NCBI GenBank assembly: GCA_018644665.1 | Contig: JABGQA010000108.1 | Coordinates: forward strand, 67,527-131,526 | Direction: 5' to 3' | DNA length: 64,000 nucleotides | From: Candidatus Poribacteria bacterium | GTDB taxonomy: Bacteria > Poribacteria > WGA-4E > GCA-2687025 | Shown: positions 44,086 to 52,359 of the stretch, piece by piece | Position numbering within the stretch: the stretch's first letter is position 1 | Layout of the letters: every line of letters begins with the position of its first letter | Made by a program: the position numbers and the translations under genes | The notes under the pieces: model-generated | Databases searched by the model: none | The model's input: the letters and a program-made list of their open reading frames with translations, nothing else | What the model was told of the DNA's origin: nothing

Positions 44086-47000
44086 TCAGACGCCCAGCAT
44101 CGGCCGCAGGAACCTGCCGGTGTGCGACTCGTCCACGGTAGCGACGTGCTCGGGCGTGCCTTCCGCGACGATATATCCGCCCGCCTCTCCGCCGTCGGGT
44201 CCGAGGTCGATCACGTGATCCGCGGAGGCGACCACCGACAGGTTGTGCTCGATCACGACGACCGTGCTGCCCTGGTCTGCGAGGCGGTGGATGACGTCGA
44301 GCAGCTTACGGATGTCGTCGAAGTGGAGGCCGGTCGTCGGTTCATCCATGAGGTAGATTGTGCCGCTCGTGGAGCGCCGCGCGAGTTCCTTCGCGAGCTT
44401 GACGCGTTGCGCCTCGCCGCCACTCAGCGTCGTCGCCGACTGCCCTAGATGGATGTACCCCAGGCCGACGTCACGGAGCGTCTCTAGCTTGCGCCGGATA
44501 CGCGGGACGTTCATGAAGTGCTCGAGCGCCTCCGCGACGGTCATGTGCAGCACGTCGGCGACGTTCTTGCCCGCGTAGCGGATGTCGAGCGTCTCGCGGT
44601 TGTACCCCGTGCCGCCGCACGTCTCGCACTCGATCCACACGTCGGGCAGGAACTGCATCTCGATGCGTGTGAAGCCGTGTCCGTAGCACGTCTCGCACTG
44701 GCCGGACTTGAGGTTGGAGCTGAACCGACGGGAATCGAACCCGCGCGCCTTCGCCTCGGGTAGCTCCGCGAACAGCTTGCGGATGTCGGTGAAGACGTCG
44801 GTGTACGTCGCCGGGTTCGAGCGCGGCGTCTCGCCGATGGGCTTCTGGTCGATGTTGATCACCTTGTCGAGGAACTGGAGGCCATCGACTTCGGTGTGCG
44901 GTCCTGCCTGTCGCGATTGCGCAGCGTTCAACTTGCGCGCGAGGATCGGGTAGAGAGTCTCCTCAATGAGCGACGACTTGCCTGACCCCGACACGCCCGT
45001 GACCGCGGTGAACGTCCCCAGTGGGATGGCCAGCTCGACGTCCTTCAGGTTGTTCAGGCTTGCTCCCGACAACCGCAGGGCGACTCCCTTGCCCTCGCGA
45101 CGCTTGGGTGGCCTCGGGATCGCCTCGGCGCCGGCGAGGAACCTTCCGGTCAGCGAGTCGTCGATCTCGATGAGCCGATCTGCCGAGCCCTCGGCGACGA
45201 TCTCGCCACCGTGACGCCCCGCTCGCGGCCCGAAGTCCACGACGTGATCCGCCATGCGGATGGTCGCCTCGTCATGTTCTACAACGATGACTGTGTTCCC
45301 GAGGTCTCGGAGCCGGGCAAGCGCCTTGAGGAGGCGGTCGTTGTCCCGCGCGTGGAGGCCGATCGTTGGCTCGTCGAGGACGTACAGCACGCCGGTCAGC
45401 CCTGACCCCAACTGCGACGCGAGGCGAATCCGCTGCGCCTCGCCGCCCGAGAGCGACGGAGCCGGCCGCGCCATCGTCAGGTACTCGAGTCCCACATCCA
45501 GCAGGAACTCCAGGCGGTTGCCGATCTCCATGAGAAGCTCGCGCGCGATCTCCGCCCGCTGTCCCTCTAGCCGTACGGAGCGGAAGAAGGTGAACGCGTC
45601 GCGGATGGTCATCCGCGTGACGTCGATGATGTTCCTCTCGCCGATGCGGACGTTCAGCGCCAGCGGCATGAGCCGCGTGCCATGGCATGCGGGGCAGTCA
45701 ACTTGCCGCAGGAACGGACGCACCTCGCGGGTAAACGCGCCACGGACATGCAGCCAGTCCGTCGTGCCGACGGCCCCTCGGAAACGCACGCGCCCGTCGC
45801 CGAAGTCGTACCGCTTGCGCGAGCCGTAGAGGATGACGTCCTTCGCCTCATCGGAGATCTTCGCGAACGGCGTCGAGAGCGAGAAACCGTGCTCCCTACC
45901 GAGCCCTGCGAGGAACTTCGCCAGGGGATGCTTCGCCGTCACCGGCCCCCACACGACGACCGCGCCCGTGCGGATCGAACGCTTGGGGTTTGGGACGACG
46001 AGCTTCTCGTCGGCGCCTGTGACCCGGCCGATGCCCTCGCACCGAGGACACATGCCAAGGGAGCTGTTGAACGAGAAGTTCTGCGGCGTAACGGGCTTGA
46101 AGCTAAGACCGCACGGAACGCACGCGAAGTGCTCGCTGTACGACGCGGACAGGGTCTGATCTTCACCGTCCTCGTCGCGATGCACGCCCTCGACACGCAC
46201 GACGCCCTTGCCCTCGCGCAGGGCGACCTCGACCGCCTCCGCGAGCCGCGACCGGTCGTCCTCGCGCAGGACAAGACGGTCTGCGACGATGGCGACGTCA
46301 TGCTTGATGCGCCGGTCGAGCTCGATCTTCTCGTCGAGTTCCCGGACCTCGCCGTTCACCCACGCTCGGGCGAAGCCGGACTTGCGCGCCCTCTCGAACT
46401 GCTCCTCGTACTCCTCGCCCCGCACCAGGGCGACCGGCGCGAGCACGTGCAGGCGGCTCTCCGGCGGGAGCTGGAAGATGCTGTCCACGACCTGCTGAGA
46501 TGTCTGGCTACCGACCGGCTCGTGGCAGCTCGGGCAGTGCGCCGTCCCCGCGCGGGCGTAGAGTATGCGCAGGTAGTCGTAGATCTCGGTGACGGTGCCG
46601 ACCGTGGACCTCGGGCTCTTGCTCGGCGCCTTCTGGTCGATGGCTATGGCCGGCGAGAGCCCCTCGATGTGCTCGACGTGTGGCTTCTCGACGCGGCCCA
46701 GGAACTGACGGGCATACGCGGACAACGACTCGACGTAGCGCCGCTGTCCCTCCGCGTAGATCGTGTCGAGCGCGAGCGACGTCTTGCCCGACCCGGACAC
46801 TCCGGTGAAGGCGACCATCTGGCGCTGCGGGATGTCCACGTCTACGGACTTGAGGTTGTGCTCCGTCGCTCCACGCACTCTGATAGTGTCCATCGCCTTG
46901 CTGCGTGGCGGCAGGGGCGCATCGTCGAGGGGCTCGGGGCCGTCCCCCGTCGCGGCATGGAGCGCCGCGCGTAGGAATCTGCCTGTCTCTGTCGCCGGCT

Positions 47001-49821
47001 CCTCGTCGGGAGAGTCCGTCTCCGCGATCAATTCCGGCGCTCCCACGCCGATCAGGTAGCCGCCCTCTTCGCCGCCCTCGGGGCCGAGATCGATGATGTG
47101 GTCGGCGGTCTTGATGACCTCCATGTTGTGCTCGATCACGACGACCGTGTTGCCGCGGTCCGCGAGTTCGTGGAGCACTTCCAGGAGCTTCCGCACGTCC
47201 TCGAAGTGCAGACCTGTCGTGGGTTCGTCGAGGACGTACAGCGTCTGCCCCGTGGCGACGCGACTGAGTTCCTTGGAGAGCTTCACACGCTGCGCTTCGC
47301 CGCCGGAGAGCGTCGGAGCGGGCTGGCCGAGCTTGATGTAGTCGAGCCCGACATCGTGCAGCGTCTTCAGCTTGCGCGCGATCTTGGGGATGTCGCCGAA
47401 GTGTTCGAGCGCCTGCGAGATGTCCATGTCGAGGGCGTCGGCGATGCTCTTGCCCTTGTACCGGATGTCTAGCGTCTCGTCGTTGAAGCGGGTGCCGTTG
47501 CAGACCTCGCACTTCACCCAGACGTCCGCCAGCAACTGCATCTCGATCTTCTTGTACCCGTGGCCCTGACACGCCTCGCACCGGCCGGCTTTCACGTTGA
47601 AGCTGAACCTACCGGGCTTGTATCCGCGCACGCGCGACTCGGGCATCTGCGAGTACAGCTCGCGAATCTGGTCCCATACCTTCACGTACGTCGCGGGATT
47701 CGAGCGCGGCGTGCGTCCGATTGGCGACTGGTCGATCGTGATGATCTTGTTGAGGTGTTCGATGCCCTCGATGCCATCGTGCGCCCCGGGCGCCTCCTCG
47801 GCGCGCATGAGGTCGCGCGCGAGCGCCTTGCACACGATGTCGTTGACGAGCGAGGACTTGCCGGAGCCAGACACGCCGGTGACGCACGTAAACAGACCGA
47901 TCGGGATCTCTACATCGAGTCCCTTGAGGTTGTTCTGTCGAGCGCCCTTGACGGACAGCCAACTACCGTTCGGCGCGCGGCGCTCGTCGGGTATGGGTAT
48001 CTGCATCTCGTGCGACAGGTAGCGGCCGGTGATGGAGGCGTCCTCGTCCATCACCTTGCCGGGCGCGCCGGCGACGACGACCTCGCCGCCCTGGATTCCG
48101 GCGCCGGGACCGAAATCCACGATGTAGTCGGACTCGCGCATCGTCTCTTCGTCGTGTTCGACGATGATGATCGTGTTGCCGATGTCTCGGAGATGCTTGA
48201 GCGTGTCGAGCAGCTTCTTGTTGTCGCGGGCGTGGAGGCCGATGCTGGGCTCGTCGAGGATGTAGACGACGCCCACGAGGCCGGTGCCGATTTGGCTTGC
48301 TAGGCGTATGCGCTGCGACTCGCCGCCCGAGAGCGTCGGCGCGGTGCGGTTGAGCGACAGATAGTGCAAGCCCACGTTACGGAGGAACCACAGGCGGGCG
48401 CGGACCTCCTTGAGCACCTGTTCTGCGATGGTCGCTTGACGAGGCGTGAGGTCGATGGCCTCGAAGAACTCCTGCGCGTCGCCAACGCTCATGCCGGTGA
48501 CGTCGAAGATGGTCCTGTCGGCGACTTTGACGGCGTGCGCCTCACGGCGGAGCCGGGTGCCCTCGCAGTCGGGGCATTCGAGCGTGTCCATGAACTTCGC
48601 GTAGTTGCGCCGGACGGCGTCGGAACTCGTCTCCCGCCACCGGTATTCGATGTTGCGCAGCACGCCGCCGAAGCGCCATCGCCGCTGGCGTGGCTTCCCA
48701 TCGCGGTAGACGGTGACGGGTATGCGCTTGTCTCCCAACCCGTCCATGAGCTTCTCGCGGACCTTCTTGGTCAGGTCCTTCCACGGCGTGTCGAGAGAGA
48801 ACTCCAGATGCGCGGCGATGCCCTCGGCCACGGGGTTGTACTCTTTGAGTTCGCCCCAGGTGGCGATGGCGCCCTCGCGGATCGACTTGCTCGGGTCGGG
48901 AACGACTTTGTCCAACGATCCCTGTGTCGTCCCGCCGATGCCGTTGCACTCGGGGCAGGCGCCCTTCGGGCTGTTGAACGAGAACAGCTGGGGCGACGGT
49001 TCCTCGTAGCTCGTAGCGCACGTGGGACACGAGTAGTGCTGGCTGAACAGCATCTCCTCGCCGTCCATCGTGTCCGCGATGATGAGGCCGCCGGAGAGCT
49101 TGACTGCCGTCTCGACGGACTCGGCTATCCTGTCGCGGATGCCGTCCTTGATGACGATACGATCGACGACGATCTCGATGTCGTGGCGCAACTGGCGGTC
49201 GAGGTGGATCGTCTCGGTGAGTTCGTGCAACTGACCGTCGACGCGAGCGCGGGCAAAGCCGGCCTTGAGGGCGTCTTCGAGTTCTTCGCGGTACTCACCC
49301 TTGCGGCCACGGACGACAGGCGCCAGGAGTTGCAGCCTCTGCCCCTCGGGCAGCGCGAGCAACTGATCCACGATCTCGTCGCGCGTCTGCGCACCCACTT
49401 CTGTGCCGCACTCGAGGCAGTGCATCGTCCCGACGCGGGCGAAGAGCAGGCGCAGGTAGTCGTATATCTCCGTGATCGTCGCCACCGTAGAGCGCGGATT
49501 GTACCCGGTGGACTTCTGGTCGATGGAGATGGTCGGAGAGAGACCGCCGATGAAGTCCACGTCCGGCTTTTGCATCTGCCCGAGGAACTGGCGAGCGTAC
49601 GCGGACAGGGACTCCACGTAGCGCCTCTGGCCCTCGGCGTAGAGCGTGTCGAAGGCGAGTGACGACTTGCCCGAGCCACTCACGCCCGTGAAGCAGATGA
49701 GGTGGTTCTTGGGTAACTCTAGCTGGATGTCCTGGAGGTTGTGCTCTCGCGCGCCCCTGACGGTGATGGTCTCGAATGCCGGCGCAGAATGCTCCGGAGG
49801 CGTGCGATCAGGGTCGTTCAT
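44086..49821 (-). CDS. uvrA: double-length UvrA excinuclease ATPase (two fused copies)
   Basis: A 1911-residue protein, twice the usual UvrA length. Copy 1 covers about residues 1-976; copy 2 starts at Met977 (AMDTIRVRGATEHNLKSV). Each copy has two ABC ATPase domains with intact motifs. Walker A is GVSGSGKSS at 46-54, again in copy 1 (GVSGSGKSSLVNDIV), and in copy 2 as GVSGSGKTSLALDT and GVSGSGKSSLIEET. All four signatures LSGGE and DEP-x2-GLH Walker B regions are intact. Both zinc fingers are kept in each copy (e.g. CEACQGHG/CEVCNG, CETCYGHG/CETCGG). UvrA detects DNA damage and loads UvrB. Fused double UvrA is known from chlamydiae and some planctomycetes. It would act as a single-chain version of the UvrA dimer (inference). 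Confidence 0.96.
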   Translation of the reverse strand: MNDPDRTPPEHSAPAFETITVRGAREHNLQDIQLELPKNHLICFTGVSGSGKSSLAFDTLYAEGQRRYVESLSAYARQFLGQMQKPDVDFIGGLSPTISIDQKSTGYNPRSTVATITEIYDYLRLLFARVGTMHCLECGTEVGAQTRDEIVDQLLALPEGQRLQLLAPVVRGRKGEYREELEDALKAGFARARVDGQLHELTETIHLDRQLRHDIEIVVDRIVIKDGIRDRIAESVETAVKLSGGLIIADTMDGEEMLFSQHYSCPTCATSYEEPSPQLFSFNSPKGACPECNGIGGTTQGSLDKVVPDPSKSIREGAIATWGELKEYNPVAEGIAAHLEFSLDTPWKDLTKKVREKLMDGLGDKRIPVTVYRDGKPRQRRWRFGGVLRNIEYRWRETSSDAVRRNYAKFMDTLECPDCEGTRLRREAHAVKVADRTIFDVTGMSVGDAQEFFEAIDLTPRQATIAEQVLKEVRARLWFLRNVGLHYLSLNRTAPTLSGGESQRIRLASQIGTGLVGVVYILDEPSIGLHARDNKKLLDTLKHLRDIGNTIIIVEHDEETMRESDYIVDFGPGAGIQGGEVVVAGAPGKVMDEDASITGRYLSHEMQIPIPDERRAPNGSWLSVKGARQNNLKGLDVEIPIGLFTCVTGVSGSGKSSLVNDIVCKALARDLMRAEEAPGAHDGIEGIEHLNKIITIDQSPIGRTPRSNPATYVKVWDQIRELYSQMPESRVRGYKPGRFSFNVKAGRCEACQGHGYKKIEMQLLADVWVKCEVCNGTRFNDETLDIRYKGKSIADALDMDISQALEHFGDIPKIARKLKTLHDVGLDYIKLGQPAPTLSGGEAQRVKLSKELSRVATGQTLYVLDEPTTGLHFEDVRKLLEVLHELADRGNTVVVIEHNMEVIKTADHIIDLGPEGGEEGGYLIGVGAPELIAETDSPDEEPATETGRFLRAALHAATGDGPEPLDDAPLPPRSKAMDTIRVRGATEHNLKSVDVDIPQRQMVAFTGVSGSGKTSLALDTIYAEGQRRYVESLSAYARQFLGRVEKPHVEHIEGLSPAIAIDQKAPSKSPRSTVGTVTEIYDYLRILYARAGTAHCPSCHEPVGSQTSQQVVDSIFQLPPESRLHVLAPVALVRGEEYEEQFERARKSGFARAWVNGEVRELDEKIELDRRIKHDVAIVADRLVLREDDRSRLAEAVEVALREGKGVVRVEGVHRDEDGEDQTLSASYSEHFACVPCGLSFKPVTPQNFSFNSSLGMCPRCEGIGRVTGADEKLVVPNPKRSIRTGAVVVWGPVTAKHPLAKFLAGLGREHGFSLSTPFAKISDEAKDVILYGSRKRYDFGDGRVRFRGAVGTTDWLHVRGAFTREVRPFLRQVDCPACHGTRLMPLALNVRIGERNIIDVTRMTIRDAFTFFRSVRLEGQRAEIARELLMEIGNRLEFLLDVGLEYLTMARPAPSLSGGEAQRIRLASQLGSGLTGVLYVLDEPTIGLHARDNDRLLKALARLRDLGNTVIVVEHDEATIRMADHVVDFGPRAGRHGGEIVAEGSADRLIEIDDSLTGRFLAGAEAIPRPPKRREGKGVALRLSGASLNNLKDVELAIPLGTFTAVTGVSGSGKSSLIEETLYPILARKLNAAQSRQAGPHTEVDGLQFLDKVINIDQKPIGETPRSNPATYTDVFTDIRKLFAELPEAKARGFDSRRFSSNLKSGQCETCYGHGFTRIEMQFLPDVWIECETCGGTGYNRETLDIRYAGKNVADVLHMTVAEALEHFMNVPRIRRKLETLRDVGLGYIHLGQSATTLSGGEAQRVKLAKELARRSTSGTIYLMDEPTTGLHFDDIRKLLDVIHRLADQGSTVVVIEHNLSVVASADHVIDLGPDGGEAGGYIVAEGTPEHVATVDESHTGRFLRPMLGV

Positions 49822-50834: not shown

Positions 50835-50934
50835 CGGGTCGCTGAGCGACCACGGCCGGCGCCGCTCGTGCCCTTAGGGTGGGAGCGGATGTCCGGCCTT
50901 CGCCGGCTGGGCAGGGCAGAGAGGGACCAACGGC

Positions 50935-52359
50935 ATGGACGCTAAAAGTGTCGTCTTAGCCATCGCGGACATCAGCGGCTACACGGAATTCATGCTGTCG
51001 CACGAGAAGTCTCTCGCGCATAGCCAGATGATCGTCAGCGAGGTCCTTGGCGTCCTCGTCGAGGAGATCCGGCCCCCGCTCGAGCTGGTCGAGCTTGAGG
51101 GCGACGCAGTTTTCATGTACGCGCCCAAGGACGACACCGCGGACACTTGGCCGGCCACGCGAAAGGCGATCGGGGAGCAGCTGCTGCGCATCGCCGAGGT
51201 CTTTGCCAGCAAGGTAAGGGAGCTCCAAGCGTACAGCATATGTCTGTGCGGCGCGTGCGCGAACATCGAGGGGCTTCGGCTGAAGACCGTGATCCACAGT
51301 GGCGAGGTCGTATTCCCACAGATCGGGCGCTTCCACCGGCTGTCCGGCGTCGACGTCATCACCGCGCACCGGTTGCTTAAGAACTCCGTGGATGAGGATG
51401 AGTACATCCTGATGACAGAGGCGGCGTATGGCGACGTGGAATTCCCTCAACCGCTCGAGACGTTCGAGGGCGAGGAGGTATATGGTGTCGGCTCCATGCG
51501 AACGTATGTCTGCCTCCCGCCAAGCTCTGACGCCACGGTAGACGACTTTGCGCCGGGCGAATTCGCTCTGTCCGGCATGGGCGTCGAGATTCTCCGCCAC
51601 GACATACGCCACGAGTACACCGAGGTCGCCAATACGCCCGACAAGGGTTTCCACTTCCACACGGGCGCCCCGTTGGCGGCGATGCTCGGCTATCCCGATG
51701 ACGTCGTGGCCAACACTCCGGCATCATGCATGGAGTCGTTCGCCGGGACAGGCAATCCGTTTTCGTTGGGGGAGATCGCGGCAGGATCGAACGTCGTGGA
51801 CATCGGTTCGGGCGCTGGGTTCGATTCGCTGATCGCGGCGGGGATCGTTGGGCCCGCGGGGGCCGTCGTCGGCGTGGAGATGACCCCTGGCATGTTGCAC
51901 AAAGCGCGGCAGTCGGCCGCGGAGGCGGGCATCGGTCAGGTGGAGTTCCGCGAGGGCTATGCGGAGGAGTTGCCCGTCCCAGACGAGTGGGCGGATGTCG
52001 TGATCTCGAATGGCGTGGTCAACCTGTGTCCCGACAAGGCTGCGGTCTACGGTGAGATGTACAGGGTGCTGAAGCCCGGGGGCCGCTTGCAGCTCGCGGA
52101 CATCATCGTGCAGAAGGAGATCCCCGACGAGGCGAAGAGGGACATTGATCTTTGGACCGGCTGAATAGCAGGCGCTCTGCTGGAAGCAGAGCTAGCAGCC
52201 GTGGTCACTGAGGCAGGCTTCGAGGGGTTCGAACTCACGTGGCGCAAGGATGTCTTCCAGGACACGCCCCAGGAGACCGCCGCGGTGAAGTTCGGGACGC
52301 TAGGTGTAAACTTCAGGGCCAGGAAGCCGCTATCGCCGTCGACGGCGCGTAGCCACTGA
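50935..52359 (+). CDS. probable selenoprotein: DUF2652-like cyclase-type domain fused to ArsM-like methyltransferase
   Basis: A fusion. Residues 1 to about 190 resemble DUF2652 and class III cyclase-like domains (VLAIADISGYTEFMLSHEKS, VELEGDAVFMY, LKTVIHSGEVVFPQ). From about residue 230 it is a SAM methyltransferase of the ArsM/UbiE type (ESFAGTGNPFSLGE, NVVDIGSGAGFDS at 287-298, ADVVISNGVVNLCPDK, VLKPGGRLQLADIIV). The frame reaches TGA at 52162-52164 (codon 410) right after DLWTG and continues IAGALLEAELAAVVTEAGFE to a TGA at 52357-52359. ArsM relatives usually have Cys in a C-I-A/S-G-A motif at this site. The 64 downstream codons keep G/C third bases and family-like sequence. With the SECIS-like hairpin this indicates Sec410. 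The alternative is a nonsense mutation. AGAGAGGGA precedes the ATG. The enzyme may methylate arsenic or a related metalloid (inference). Confidence 0.8.
52174..52192 (+). promoter_or_regulatory. putative bacterial SECIS element
   Basis: GCTCTGCT (52174-52181), loop GGA (52182-52184), AGCAGAGC (52185-52192): a perfect 8-bp stem. Seventeen bases separate the in-frame TGA from the loop, and the loop begins with GG. Both match the general bacterial SECIS rules (loop with G in the first two positions, about 16-37 bases from UGA). It lies within coding sequence, as bacterial SECIS elements do. Confidence 0.7.

What the first reader, a model, noticed from the sequence alone, without database searches (positions are those of the whole stretch)
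50935..52359. Probable new selenoprotein: in-frame TGA with a SECIS-like hairpin in an ArsM-like methyltransferase
The reading frame passes a TGA at codon 410 and continues for 64 codons with the same third-position G/C bias and family-like sequence (IAGALLEAEL, then FGTLGVNFRARKP). In related methyltransferases the residue before I-A/S-G-A is usually Cys, so Sec replaces Cys. A perfect 8-bp stem with loop GGA starts 9 bases after the TGA, with 17 bases between TGA and loop, fitting the bacterial SECIS rules. Stop, spacing, stem, loop and downstream homology all agree.
Basis: partly seen in the sequence, partly recalled or inferred. Interest (0 to 1): 0.92.

Follow-up and report, generated by a model that had tools for sequence, protein, structure and literature searches.

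The report
Selenium methyltransferase fused to cyclase-like domain
This gene very probably reads an internal "stop" signal as the rare amino acid selenocysteine, placing selenium in the presumed active site of an enzyme that resembles arsenic-methylating enzymes but lacks two of their three arsenic-holding cysteines, and it is joined to a domain resembling the enzymes that make cyclic AMP or GMP, a combination met here in only three other genomes.

Summary
ORF 50935-52359 passes TGA 52162-52164 (codon 410) and continues 64 codons; an 8-bp stem with GGA loop lies at 52174-52192, 17 nt after the TGA. Selenocysteine is strongly supported. The genome has selA, selB, tRNA-Sec(UCA) and a selD with its own in-frame TGA. 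Among 118 deduplicated homologous loci the site is TGA in 60, Cys in 57, Arg in 1; the best stem is >=7 bp at spacing 16-18 at 42 of 60 TGA sites and 0 of 57 Cys sites. But the Sec site is not new: it aligns with CmArsM Cys224 and fits the UxxG motif catalogued for arsenite-methyltransferase selenoproteins. New here: (1) fusion to an N-terminal DUF2652, cyclase-like domain, also in three other genomes; (2) loss of the Cys72/Cys174 equivalents: Sec in 60 of 80 loci lacking them, 0 of 38 having both, so ordinary arsenite methylation is unlikely; (3) sulfur genes (DsrE, rhodanese) near some relatives, not near the window gene. Verdict: real selenoprotein, new variant of a known kind, substrate unknown.

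The parts
50935..52359 (+). Whole gene: DUF2652 - Sec-methyltransferase fusion, 474 residues with Sec410
   Evidence: Translation with TGA=U; three full-length homologues at 51-52% identity with the same TGA
50919..50926 (+). Shine-Dalgarno-like GAGAGGGA before ATG 50935
   Evidence: Sequence; inference
50935..51546 (+). N-terminal DUF2652 (class III nucleotide cyclase-like) domain, residues about 1-204
   Evidence: Pfam PF10851 E 1.3e-27 over residues 34-157; 48% identity to the DUF2652 protein L069 over residues 2-204; AlphaFold model (mean pLDDT 65) best hits are guanylate and adenylate cyclases, best E 1.9e-6
51241..51258 (+). CxCxxC motif, residues 103-108
   Evidence: Conserved in L069 and in all four fusion proteins
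51580..52356 (+). ArsM-like SAM methyltransferase domain, residues about 216-474
   Evidence: Pfam Methyltransf_31 E 1.3e-29; model mean pLDDT 87, best PDB hit 4fr0 (CmArsM) E 5e-19
51748..51750 (+). Thr272, in place of the first arsenic-binding Cys (CmArsM Cys72)
   Evidence: phmmer alignment to 4fr0 and 5evj, table of 118 loci
52012..52014 (+). Gly360, in place of the second arsenic-binding Cys (CmArsM Cys174)
52162..52164 (+). TGA codon 410 read as selenocysteine; aligns with CmArsM Cys224; UxxG motif
   Evidence: family motif from PMC13188914
52174..52192 (+). bacterial SECIS hairpin: 8-bp stem, GGA loop
52357..52359 (+). True stop codon (TGA)
   Evidence: Homology ends just before it; codon-position GC pattern ends after it; the three fusion homologues stop with TAG near the same place

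Best explanation
The gene encodes a selenoprotein of 474 residues. UGA 52162 is decoded as Sec by SelB and tRNA-Sec(UCA), directed by the hairpin at 52174-52192 (supported by comparison, not by experiment). The C-terminal half is an ArsM-fold SAM-dependent methyltransferase in which Sec410 sits at the place of the third arsenic-ligand Cys, while the first two are Thr and Gly; Sec410 is therefore probably the only soft nucleophile of the site. Inferred mechanism: the selenolate captures a soft, monodentate substrate (most likely a sulfane-sulfur, thiol or selenium species, less likely an arsenical that needs one protein ligand) and places it in line with the SAM methyl group for S-, Se- or As-methylation. 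The N-terminal DUF2652 domain, cyclase-like with a conserved CxCxxC, probably senses or regulates (nucleotide or thiol/metal state); it need not be an active cyclase. Likelihoods: Sec insertion 0.97; not a normal arsenite methyltransferase 0.75; sulfur or selenium substrate 0.4. The confidence below is for the Sec decoding and the domain anatomy.
For: Sec machinery in the same assembly: selB 343 bits and selA 564 bits (both over cut-off, side by side on C144), tRNA-Sec 74 bits with anticodon TCA on the same contig, selD over cut-off with an in-frame TGA; selA over cut-off in 15 of the 19 other genomes of the nearest 20, so contamination is not needed to explain it. The 6 methyltransferase relatives in named genomes all carry TGA at the site; their 6 genomes, and that of the DUF2652 relative L069, have selA over cut-off (7 of 7). 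118 loci: 60 TGA, 57 Cys, 1 Arg. Best stem >=7 bp at spacing 16-18: 42 of 60 TGA sites against 0 of 57 Cys sites. Stem on 8 aligned sites: 92.2% of cells paired, covariation score above all 500 shuffles and all slid versions. Tree: the 38 loci with both Cys72 and Cys174 form one side of a branch (support 93); at least 5 changes of the Sec label are forced (quick tree). Sec in 60 of 80 loci without both Cys, 0 of 38 with both. CmArsM C174A and C224A are inactive on arsenite and methylarsenite (PMC3877260, passages). Neighbours within 1.5 kb, L037 set aside: DsrE-like 14 of 79 against 0 of 38; hits to an MBL/rhodanese seed 10 of 79 against 0 of 38.
Against: No protein data. The hairpin alone is not exceptional (3.1% of TGAs here; z-scores near 0). 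15 of 60 TGA sites lack a >=7-bp stem by my contiguous-stem rule. In one search two measures do not exceed shuffles: pairs with two-sided changes (245 of 500 reach it) and further pair types (401 of 500). pN/pS after the TGA rises to 0.71 and 0.83 against L064 and L067. The window gene itself has none of the tested sulfur neighbours within 1.5 kb, and the neighbour comparison is confounded by phylum. Without the loci that gave the seeds the DsrE difference is p=0.008 and the MBL/rhodanese difference p=0.05. The DUF2652 model is weak.
Confidence: 0.9

Rival explanations
1. A Sec form of an ordinary arsenite methyltransferase (ArsM): Sec simply replaces Cys224 and the enzyme detoxifies arsenic.
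For: Fold and best PDB matches are ArsM/AS3MT; ArsM selenoproteins are catalogued.
Against: Cys72 and Cys174 equivalents are Thr and Gly; C174A kills CmArsM (PMC3877260, passage); 222 bits against the 263-bit cut-off of NCBIfam NF008823, whereas L091, which has all three Cys, scores 336; the same genome has a separate ArsM-like protein with all three Cys, L062. None of the five neighbouring genes tested with Pfam is an arsenic gene.
Confidence: 0.15
2. The TGA is a true stop; the 409-residue protein is the product and the downstream stretch is a decaying remnant, or the TGA is an assembly error.
For: The hairpin alone could be chance; assembly with 5.32% estimated contamination.
Against: The same TGA in 59 other loci, conserved downstream protein, pN/pS about 0.4 against L063 and L079, Sec machinery, covarying stem; the three fusion homologues carry the TGA internally and stop with TAG.
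Confidence: 0.02
3. The fusion is cosmetic: the two halves are made as separate proteins from an internal start, or the join is an assembly artefact.
For: Separate forms of both halves exist.
Against: Three other genomes show the same in-frame fusion at 51-52% identity with an alignable linker; no evident ribosome-binding site before Met215 (by eye).
Confidence: 0.05
4. DUF2652 is an active cyclase and the protein is a signalling enzyme whose methyltransferase half modulates cNMP output.
For: DUF2652 has been proposed as nucleotide cyclase-like with metal-binding Asp pairs (PMC4886424, passages); Asp12 and Asp57 are conserved with L069 and in the fusions.
Against: No measured activity of a DUF2652 protein is told in the passages I read; equivalence of the residues is by eye.
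Confidence: 0.15

Closest known systems
Arsenite methyltransferase selenoprotein (PRK11873/NF008823, UxxG; Fomenko et al. 2007 as cited in PMC9312934 and PMC13188914, itself not seen)
   Same: ArsM fold, Sec at the CmArsM Cys224 place, UxxG motif
   Different: Scores under the NF008823 cut-off (222 against 263); lacks Cys72 and Cys174 equivalents; N-terminal DUF2652 fusion. I could not see the catalogued sequence WP_011987699.1, so whether it keeps those Cys is not known to me.
NCBIfam NF041537, NF041536, NF047649 (ArsM/AhpD, ArsM/DUF2284, methyltransferase/UXPK-star selenoproteins; Haft and Tolstoy 2025, cited in PMC13188914, paper not held)
   Same: Best NCBIfam match is NF041537 (238 bits, 1e-70); same UxxG methyltransferase part
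   Different: Matches only their methyltransferase part; under all three cut-offs (510, 575, 460); partner domain is N-terminal DUF2652
DUF2652 (PF10851), nucleotide cyclase-like
   Same: The N-terminal part belongs to it by Pfam
   Different: In the 53-protein survey of PMC4886424 all were single-domain except one with a polyketide cyclase domain (passage); here fused to a Sec methyltransferase

Membership tests
Bacterial selenoproteins (SelB/bSECIS type) | In-frame UGA with conserved downstream homology | tested here: met
   60 of 118 homologous loci have TGA at the site
Bacterial selenoproteins (SelB/bSECIS type) | Cys in non-Sec homologues | tested here: met
   57 of the other 58
Bacterial selenoproteins (SelB/bSECIS type) | bSECIS within stated limits | tested here: met
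Bacterial selenoproteins (SelB/bSECIS type) | selA, selB, selC, selD in genome | tested here: met
Bacterial selenoproteins (SelB/bSECIS type) | Selenium in the protein | not testable with these tools
   needs 75Se labelling or mass spectrometry
ArsM arsenite methyltransferase | ArsM-like fold and methyltransferase domain | tested here: met
ArsM arsenite methyltransferase | At least 3 of 4 conserved Cys (44, 72, 174, 224), the rule used in PMC5552862 (passage) | tested here: not met
   72 is Thr, 174 is Gly, 224 is Sec; no Cys lies between residues 194 and 264, where the Cys44 equivalent would fall (list of Cys positions)
ArsM arsenite methyltransferase | NF008823 curated cut-off (263 bits) | tested here: not met
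   222.4 bits
ArsM arsenite methyltransferase | Arsenite methylation | not testable with these tools
   biochemistry needed
NF041537/NF041536/NF047649 selenoproteins | Curated cut-offs (510/575/460), which take in their extra parts | tested here: not met
   238, 215 and 217 bits, methyltransferase part only
DUF2652 | Pfam gathering score 22.1 | tested here: met
   96.6 bits
Class III nucleotide cyclase | Fold and two metal-binding Asp | tested here: inconclusive
   Weak model (mean pLDDT 65) hits cyclases; Asp12 and Asp57 conserved in 4 fusions and L069, equivalence by eye
Class III nucleotide cyclase | cNMP synthesis | not testable with these tools
   biochemistry needed

The most novel reading that the evidence does not exclude
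There is a widespread clade of ArsM-like methyltransferases that have given up two of the three arsenic thiolates and rely on one selenolate (or thiolate) to methylate sulfur or selenium species such as persulfide-derived thiols, linked in part of its members to DsrE, rhodanese and metallo-beta-lactamase genes; in a few lineages, including the window's, it is fused to a cyclase-like CxCxxC domain, giving a single-chain redox or chalcogen sensor with a Sec methyltransferase output.
Probability: 0.3. Interest if true: 0.75.

Novelty: new variant of a known kind. Interest (0 to 1): 0.52.

Why it matters
Most selenoproteins with known function are oxidoreductases (PMC2398784, passage). Here Sec sits in the presumed active site of a methyltransferase and, in the 118 loci examined, never occurs together with the other two arsenic-ligand Cys. 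That split separates arsenic methylation from another, unknown chemistry and makes the question what Sec does in these enzymes directly testable, also with Cys versions in named haloarchaea and a Chelatococcus. Genes of this type are probably cut short at the TGA, or named arsenite methyltransferase, by routine annotation (inference).

Tried and rejected
Hairpin energy as proof: z-scores near zero, rejected as decisive. A second Sec at the terminal TGA 52357: the codon-position GC pattern is lost beyond it, rejected. A MAFFT alignment of all seven proteins misplaced the DUF2652-only L069; replaced by two separate alignments. Viral contigs: no relative. Plasmids: 11 records with a match, none covering 80% of the query, so no fusion there. 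Papers: DUF2652 occurs in 2 held papers, the second seen in one passage only; 'methyltransferase' occurs 0 times in the text of PMC4886424. A search for NCBIfam plus selenoprotein terms gave 0 papers; searches for MduS/TsoA and for the Haft title gave only the review. Haft and Tolstoy 2025 is not held, so it may describe parts of this clade. The careful tree did not finish; the quick tree is used. Not among the 118: matches beyond the 30 loci kept per search, L038-L052 (weak or DUF2652-only matches), L069 (DUF2652 only), L070 (weak), and the duplicates L080, L131 and L162. L037 (Ile, Ala, Arg at the three places) is counted among the 118 but set aside in the neighbour counts. The query protein P0001 holds the terminal stop as a 475th residue.

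Full report
What was checked. The frame 50935-52359 is open except for TGA 52162-52164, codon 410, followed by 64 codons to TGA 52357. It satisfies the bSECIS limits given in PMC13188914 (section 5 read). By itself it is only modest evidence: 43 of 1376 TGAs of the window have a stem of at least 8 bp, and its folding energy is ordinary for this sequence.

Selenocysteine machinery. The window lies in assembly G000 (7.47 Mb, 175 contigs, estimated contamination 5.32%). It holds selB (343 bits), selA (564 bits) next to it, a tRNA-Sec of 74 bits with anticodon TCA on the same contig, and selD with an in-frame TGA at YAG-U-ASK and a 6-bp hairpin with GGT loop at spacing 20. Of the 20 nearest genomes, the own one included, 16 have selA over the cut-off, so the trait is native to the group.

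Homologues. A scan of named genomes gave 8 loci: six carry the methyltransferase with TGA at the homologous site (Candidatus Magnetominusculus, two Ilumatobacteraceae, Nitriliruptoraceae, a Chloroflexota and an Alphaproteobacteria MAG; 49-61% identity), one is DUF2652 only (L069), one is a weak match (L070). L065 (Chloroflexota) also has one internal TAG in this stretch. The genomes of L063-L069, 7 of 7, have selA over cut-off. In the window's own phylum sample 23 of 84 genomes (own included) match at E <= 1e-40, and of the 24 places listed only the window's has a TGA. Wider searches of 395, 395 and 400 genomes brought the set to 118 deduplicated loci: TGA 60, Cys 57 (36 TGT, 21 TGC), CGA 1; a last search of 138 genomes added none. 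The set was gathered by similarity to this protein and is not a census.

RNA structure. For each site I took the longest contiguous stem with G in the first two loop positions and spacing 16-37. It is >=7 bp and at spacing 16-18 at 42 of 60 TGA sites and 0 of 57 Cys sites; at any allowed spacing it is >=7 bp at 45 of 60 and 6 of 57 (Fisher p 6e-13 for the latter, relatedness not corrected). The GGA loop at spacing 17 with a stem of at least 7 bp occurs in 14 TGA loci, all four fusions among them. On 8 aligned sites the stem is paired in 92.2% of cells, with two-sided changes at 3 of 8 pairs; the covariation score exceeds all 500 shuffles and all slid controls, but the number of pairs with two-sided changes and the number of further pair types do not exceed shuffles.

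Domains. Residues 1-204 are DUF2652 (96.6 bits), a family proposed to be class III nucleotide cyclase-like (PMC4886424, passages). A low-confidence model finds cyclases first. Residues 216-474 are an ArsM-like methyltransferase; a good model (mean pLDDT 87) finds CmArsM first. The fusion is real: three other genomes (3 of the 138 of one order) encode the same fusion at 51-52% identity, each with TGA at the site, a 10-bp stem, and TAG as final stop. The Cys/Sec positions conserved in all four fusions are 103, 105, 108 and 410. L110 and L111 are nearly identical in the methyltransferase part, so with the window this is about three independent sequences. No other match listed or 92 spans both domains, and the relatives whose upstream sequence I read have the methyltransferase without DUF2652.

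Not an ordinary ArsM. In the phmmer alignment to CmArsM, Sec410 aligns with Cys224, while Cys72 and Cys174 align with Thr272 and Gly360 (numbering counted by hand from the chain positions printed there). In 118 loci the two classes do not mix: 38 with both Cys all have Cys at 410; of 80 without them, 60 have Sec, 19 Cys and one Arg. In the quick tree the 38 form one side of a branch (support 93), the Arg row L037 falling with them on a very long branch; among the others the Sec label changed at least five times. CmArsM C174A and C224A are inactive on arsenite and methylarsenite (PMC3877260, passages). The window protein scores 222 bits against the 263 cut-off of NF008823, while L091 with all three Cys scores 336. 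The same genome also encodes an ArsM-like protein with all three Cys (L062).

Likely chemistry. Within 1.5 kb of the match, where the contig reaches that far, and with L037 set aside, DsrE-like genes (two seeds) occur beside 14 of 79 loci lacking Cys72/174 and 0 of 38 others; hits to the ArsR-rhodanese seed of L064 beside 16 of 79 and 3 of 38, to that of L178 beside 19 of 79 and 0 of 38; hits to the MBL/rhodanese seed of L064 beside 10 of 79 and 0 of 38. Pfam finds DsrE in both DsrE seeds, HTH_5 plus rhodanese in both regulators, Lactamase_B in L178:3442-4194 and, for L064:2831-4174, rhodanese only. L178 shows MFS, metallo-beta-lactamase, ArsR-rhodanese and a Cys-type methyltransferase in a row on one strand. 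Cys-type relatives on plasmids lie beside OsmC in 3 of the 4 records I opened (of 11 with a match); all 4 have Val and Gly at the two Cys places. The seeds come from loci of the set, and phyla differ between classes, so this is suggestive only. The window gene has a globin-like gene upstream and SnoaL-like, pyridine nucleotide-disulphide oxidoreductase, sulfite-oxidase-like and MoeA genes downstream on the other strand, and no hit to any of the seeds.

Known or new. ArsM with Sec is listed as experimentally verified in PMC9312934 (table passages) and PMC13188914 (UxxG, table passage), both citing Fomenko et al. 2007, which I did not see. Sec methyltransferases have also been found in algal genomes by computation (PMC2375036, passages). 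Three NCBIfam selenoprotein models share the methyltransferase part. New, as far as the held papers show, are the DUF2652 fusion and the strict split between Sec and the other two arsenic cysteines; Haft and Tolstoy 2025 was not readable and may bear on this.

Noticed in passing
L089:1381-2238, L090:1345-2226, L093:1390-2229, also L092 and L097: Sec methyltransferases of the Nitrospirota-centred search have a second in-frame TGA in an N-terminal extension: PS-U-PPSGGxGGC in three of the five (L090, L092, L093), variants in L097 (SS-U-PPSGSTRGC) and L089 (AT-U-APGGGIGGC), with an ATG in frame before the TGA in four of the five: putative double selenoproteins with an N-terminal Sec peptide. L090 and L093 match the NCBIfam double-Sec models only over the methyltransferase part.
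   Followed up: partly
L011 (own genome, C129): SelD of this genome is itself a putative selenoprotein: TGA at YAG-U-ASK with a bSECIS-like hairpin.
   Followed up: yes
L062 (own genome, C169:409941-410492): The same genome carries an ArsM-like protein with all three arsenic-ligand Cys.
   Followed up: partly
L178:2141-5700: Row of MFS transporter, metallo-beta-lactamase, ArsR-rhodanese regulator and Cys-type methyltransferase on one strand, resembling a sulfane-sulfur operon.
   Followed up: partly
window 44086-49821: A 1911-residue ORF that looks like two UvrA-type excinuclease units in tandem in one reading frame (by eye).
   Followed up: no
L038 and L039: DUF2652 proteins of about 370 residues with a different C-terminal half, not identified.
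   Followed up: no
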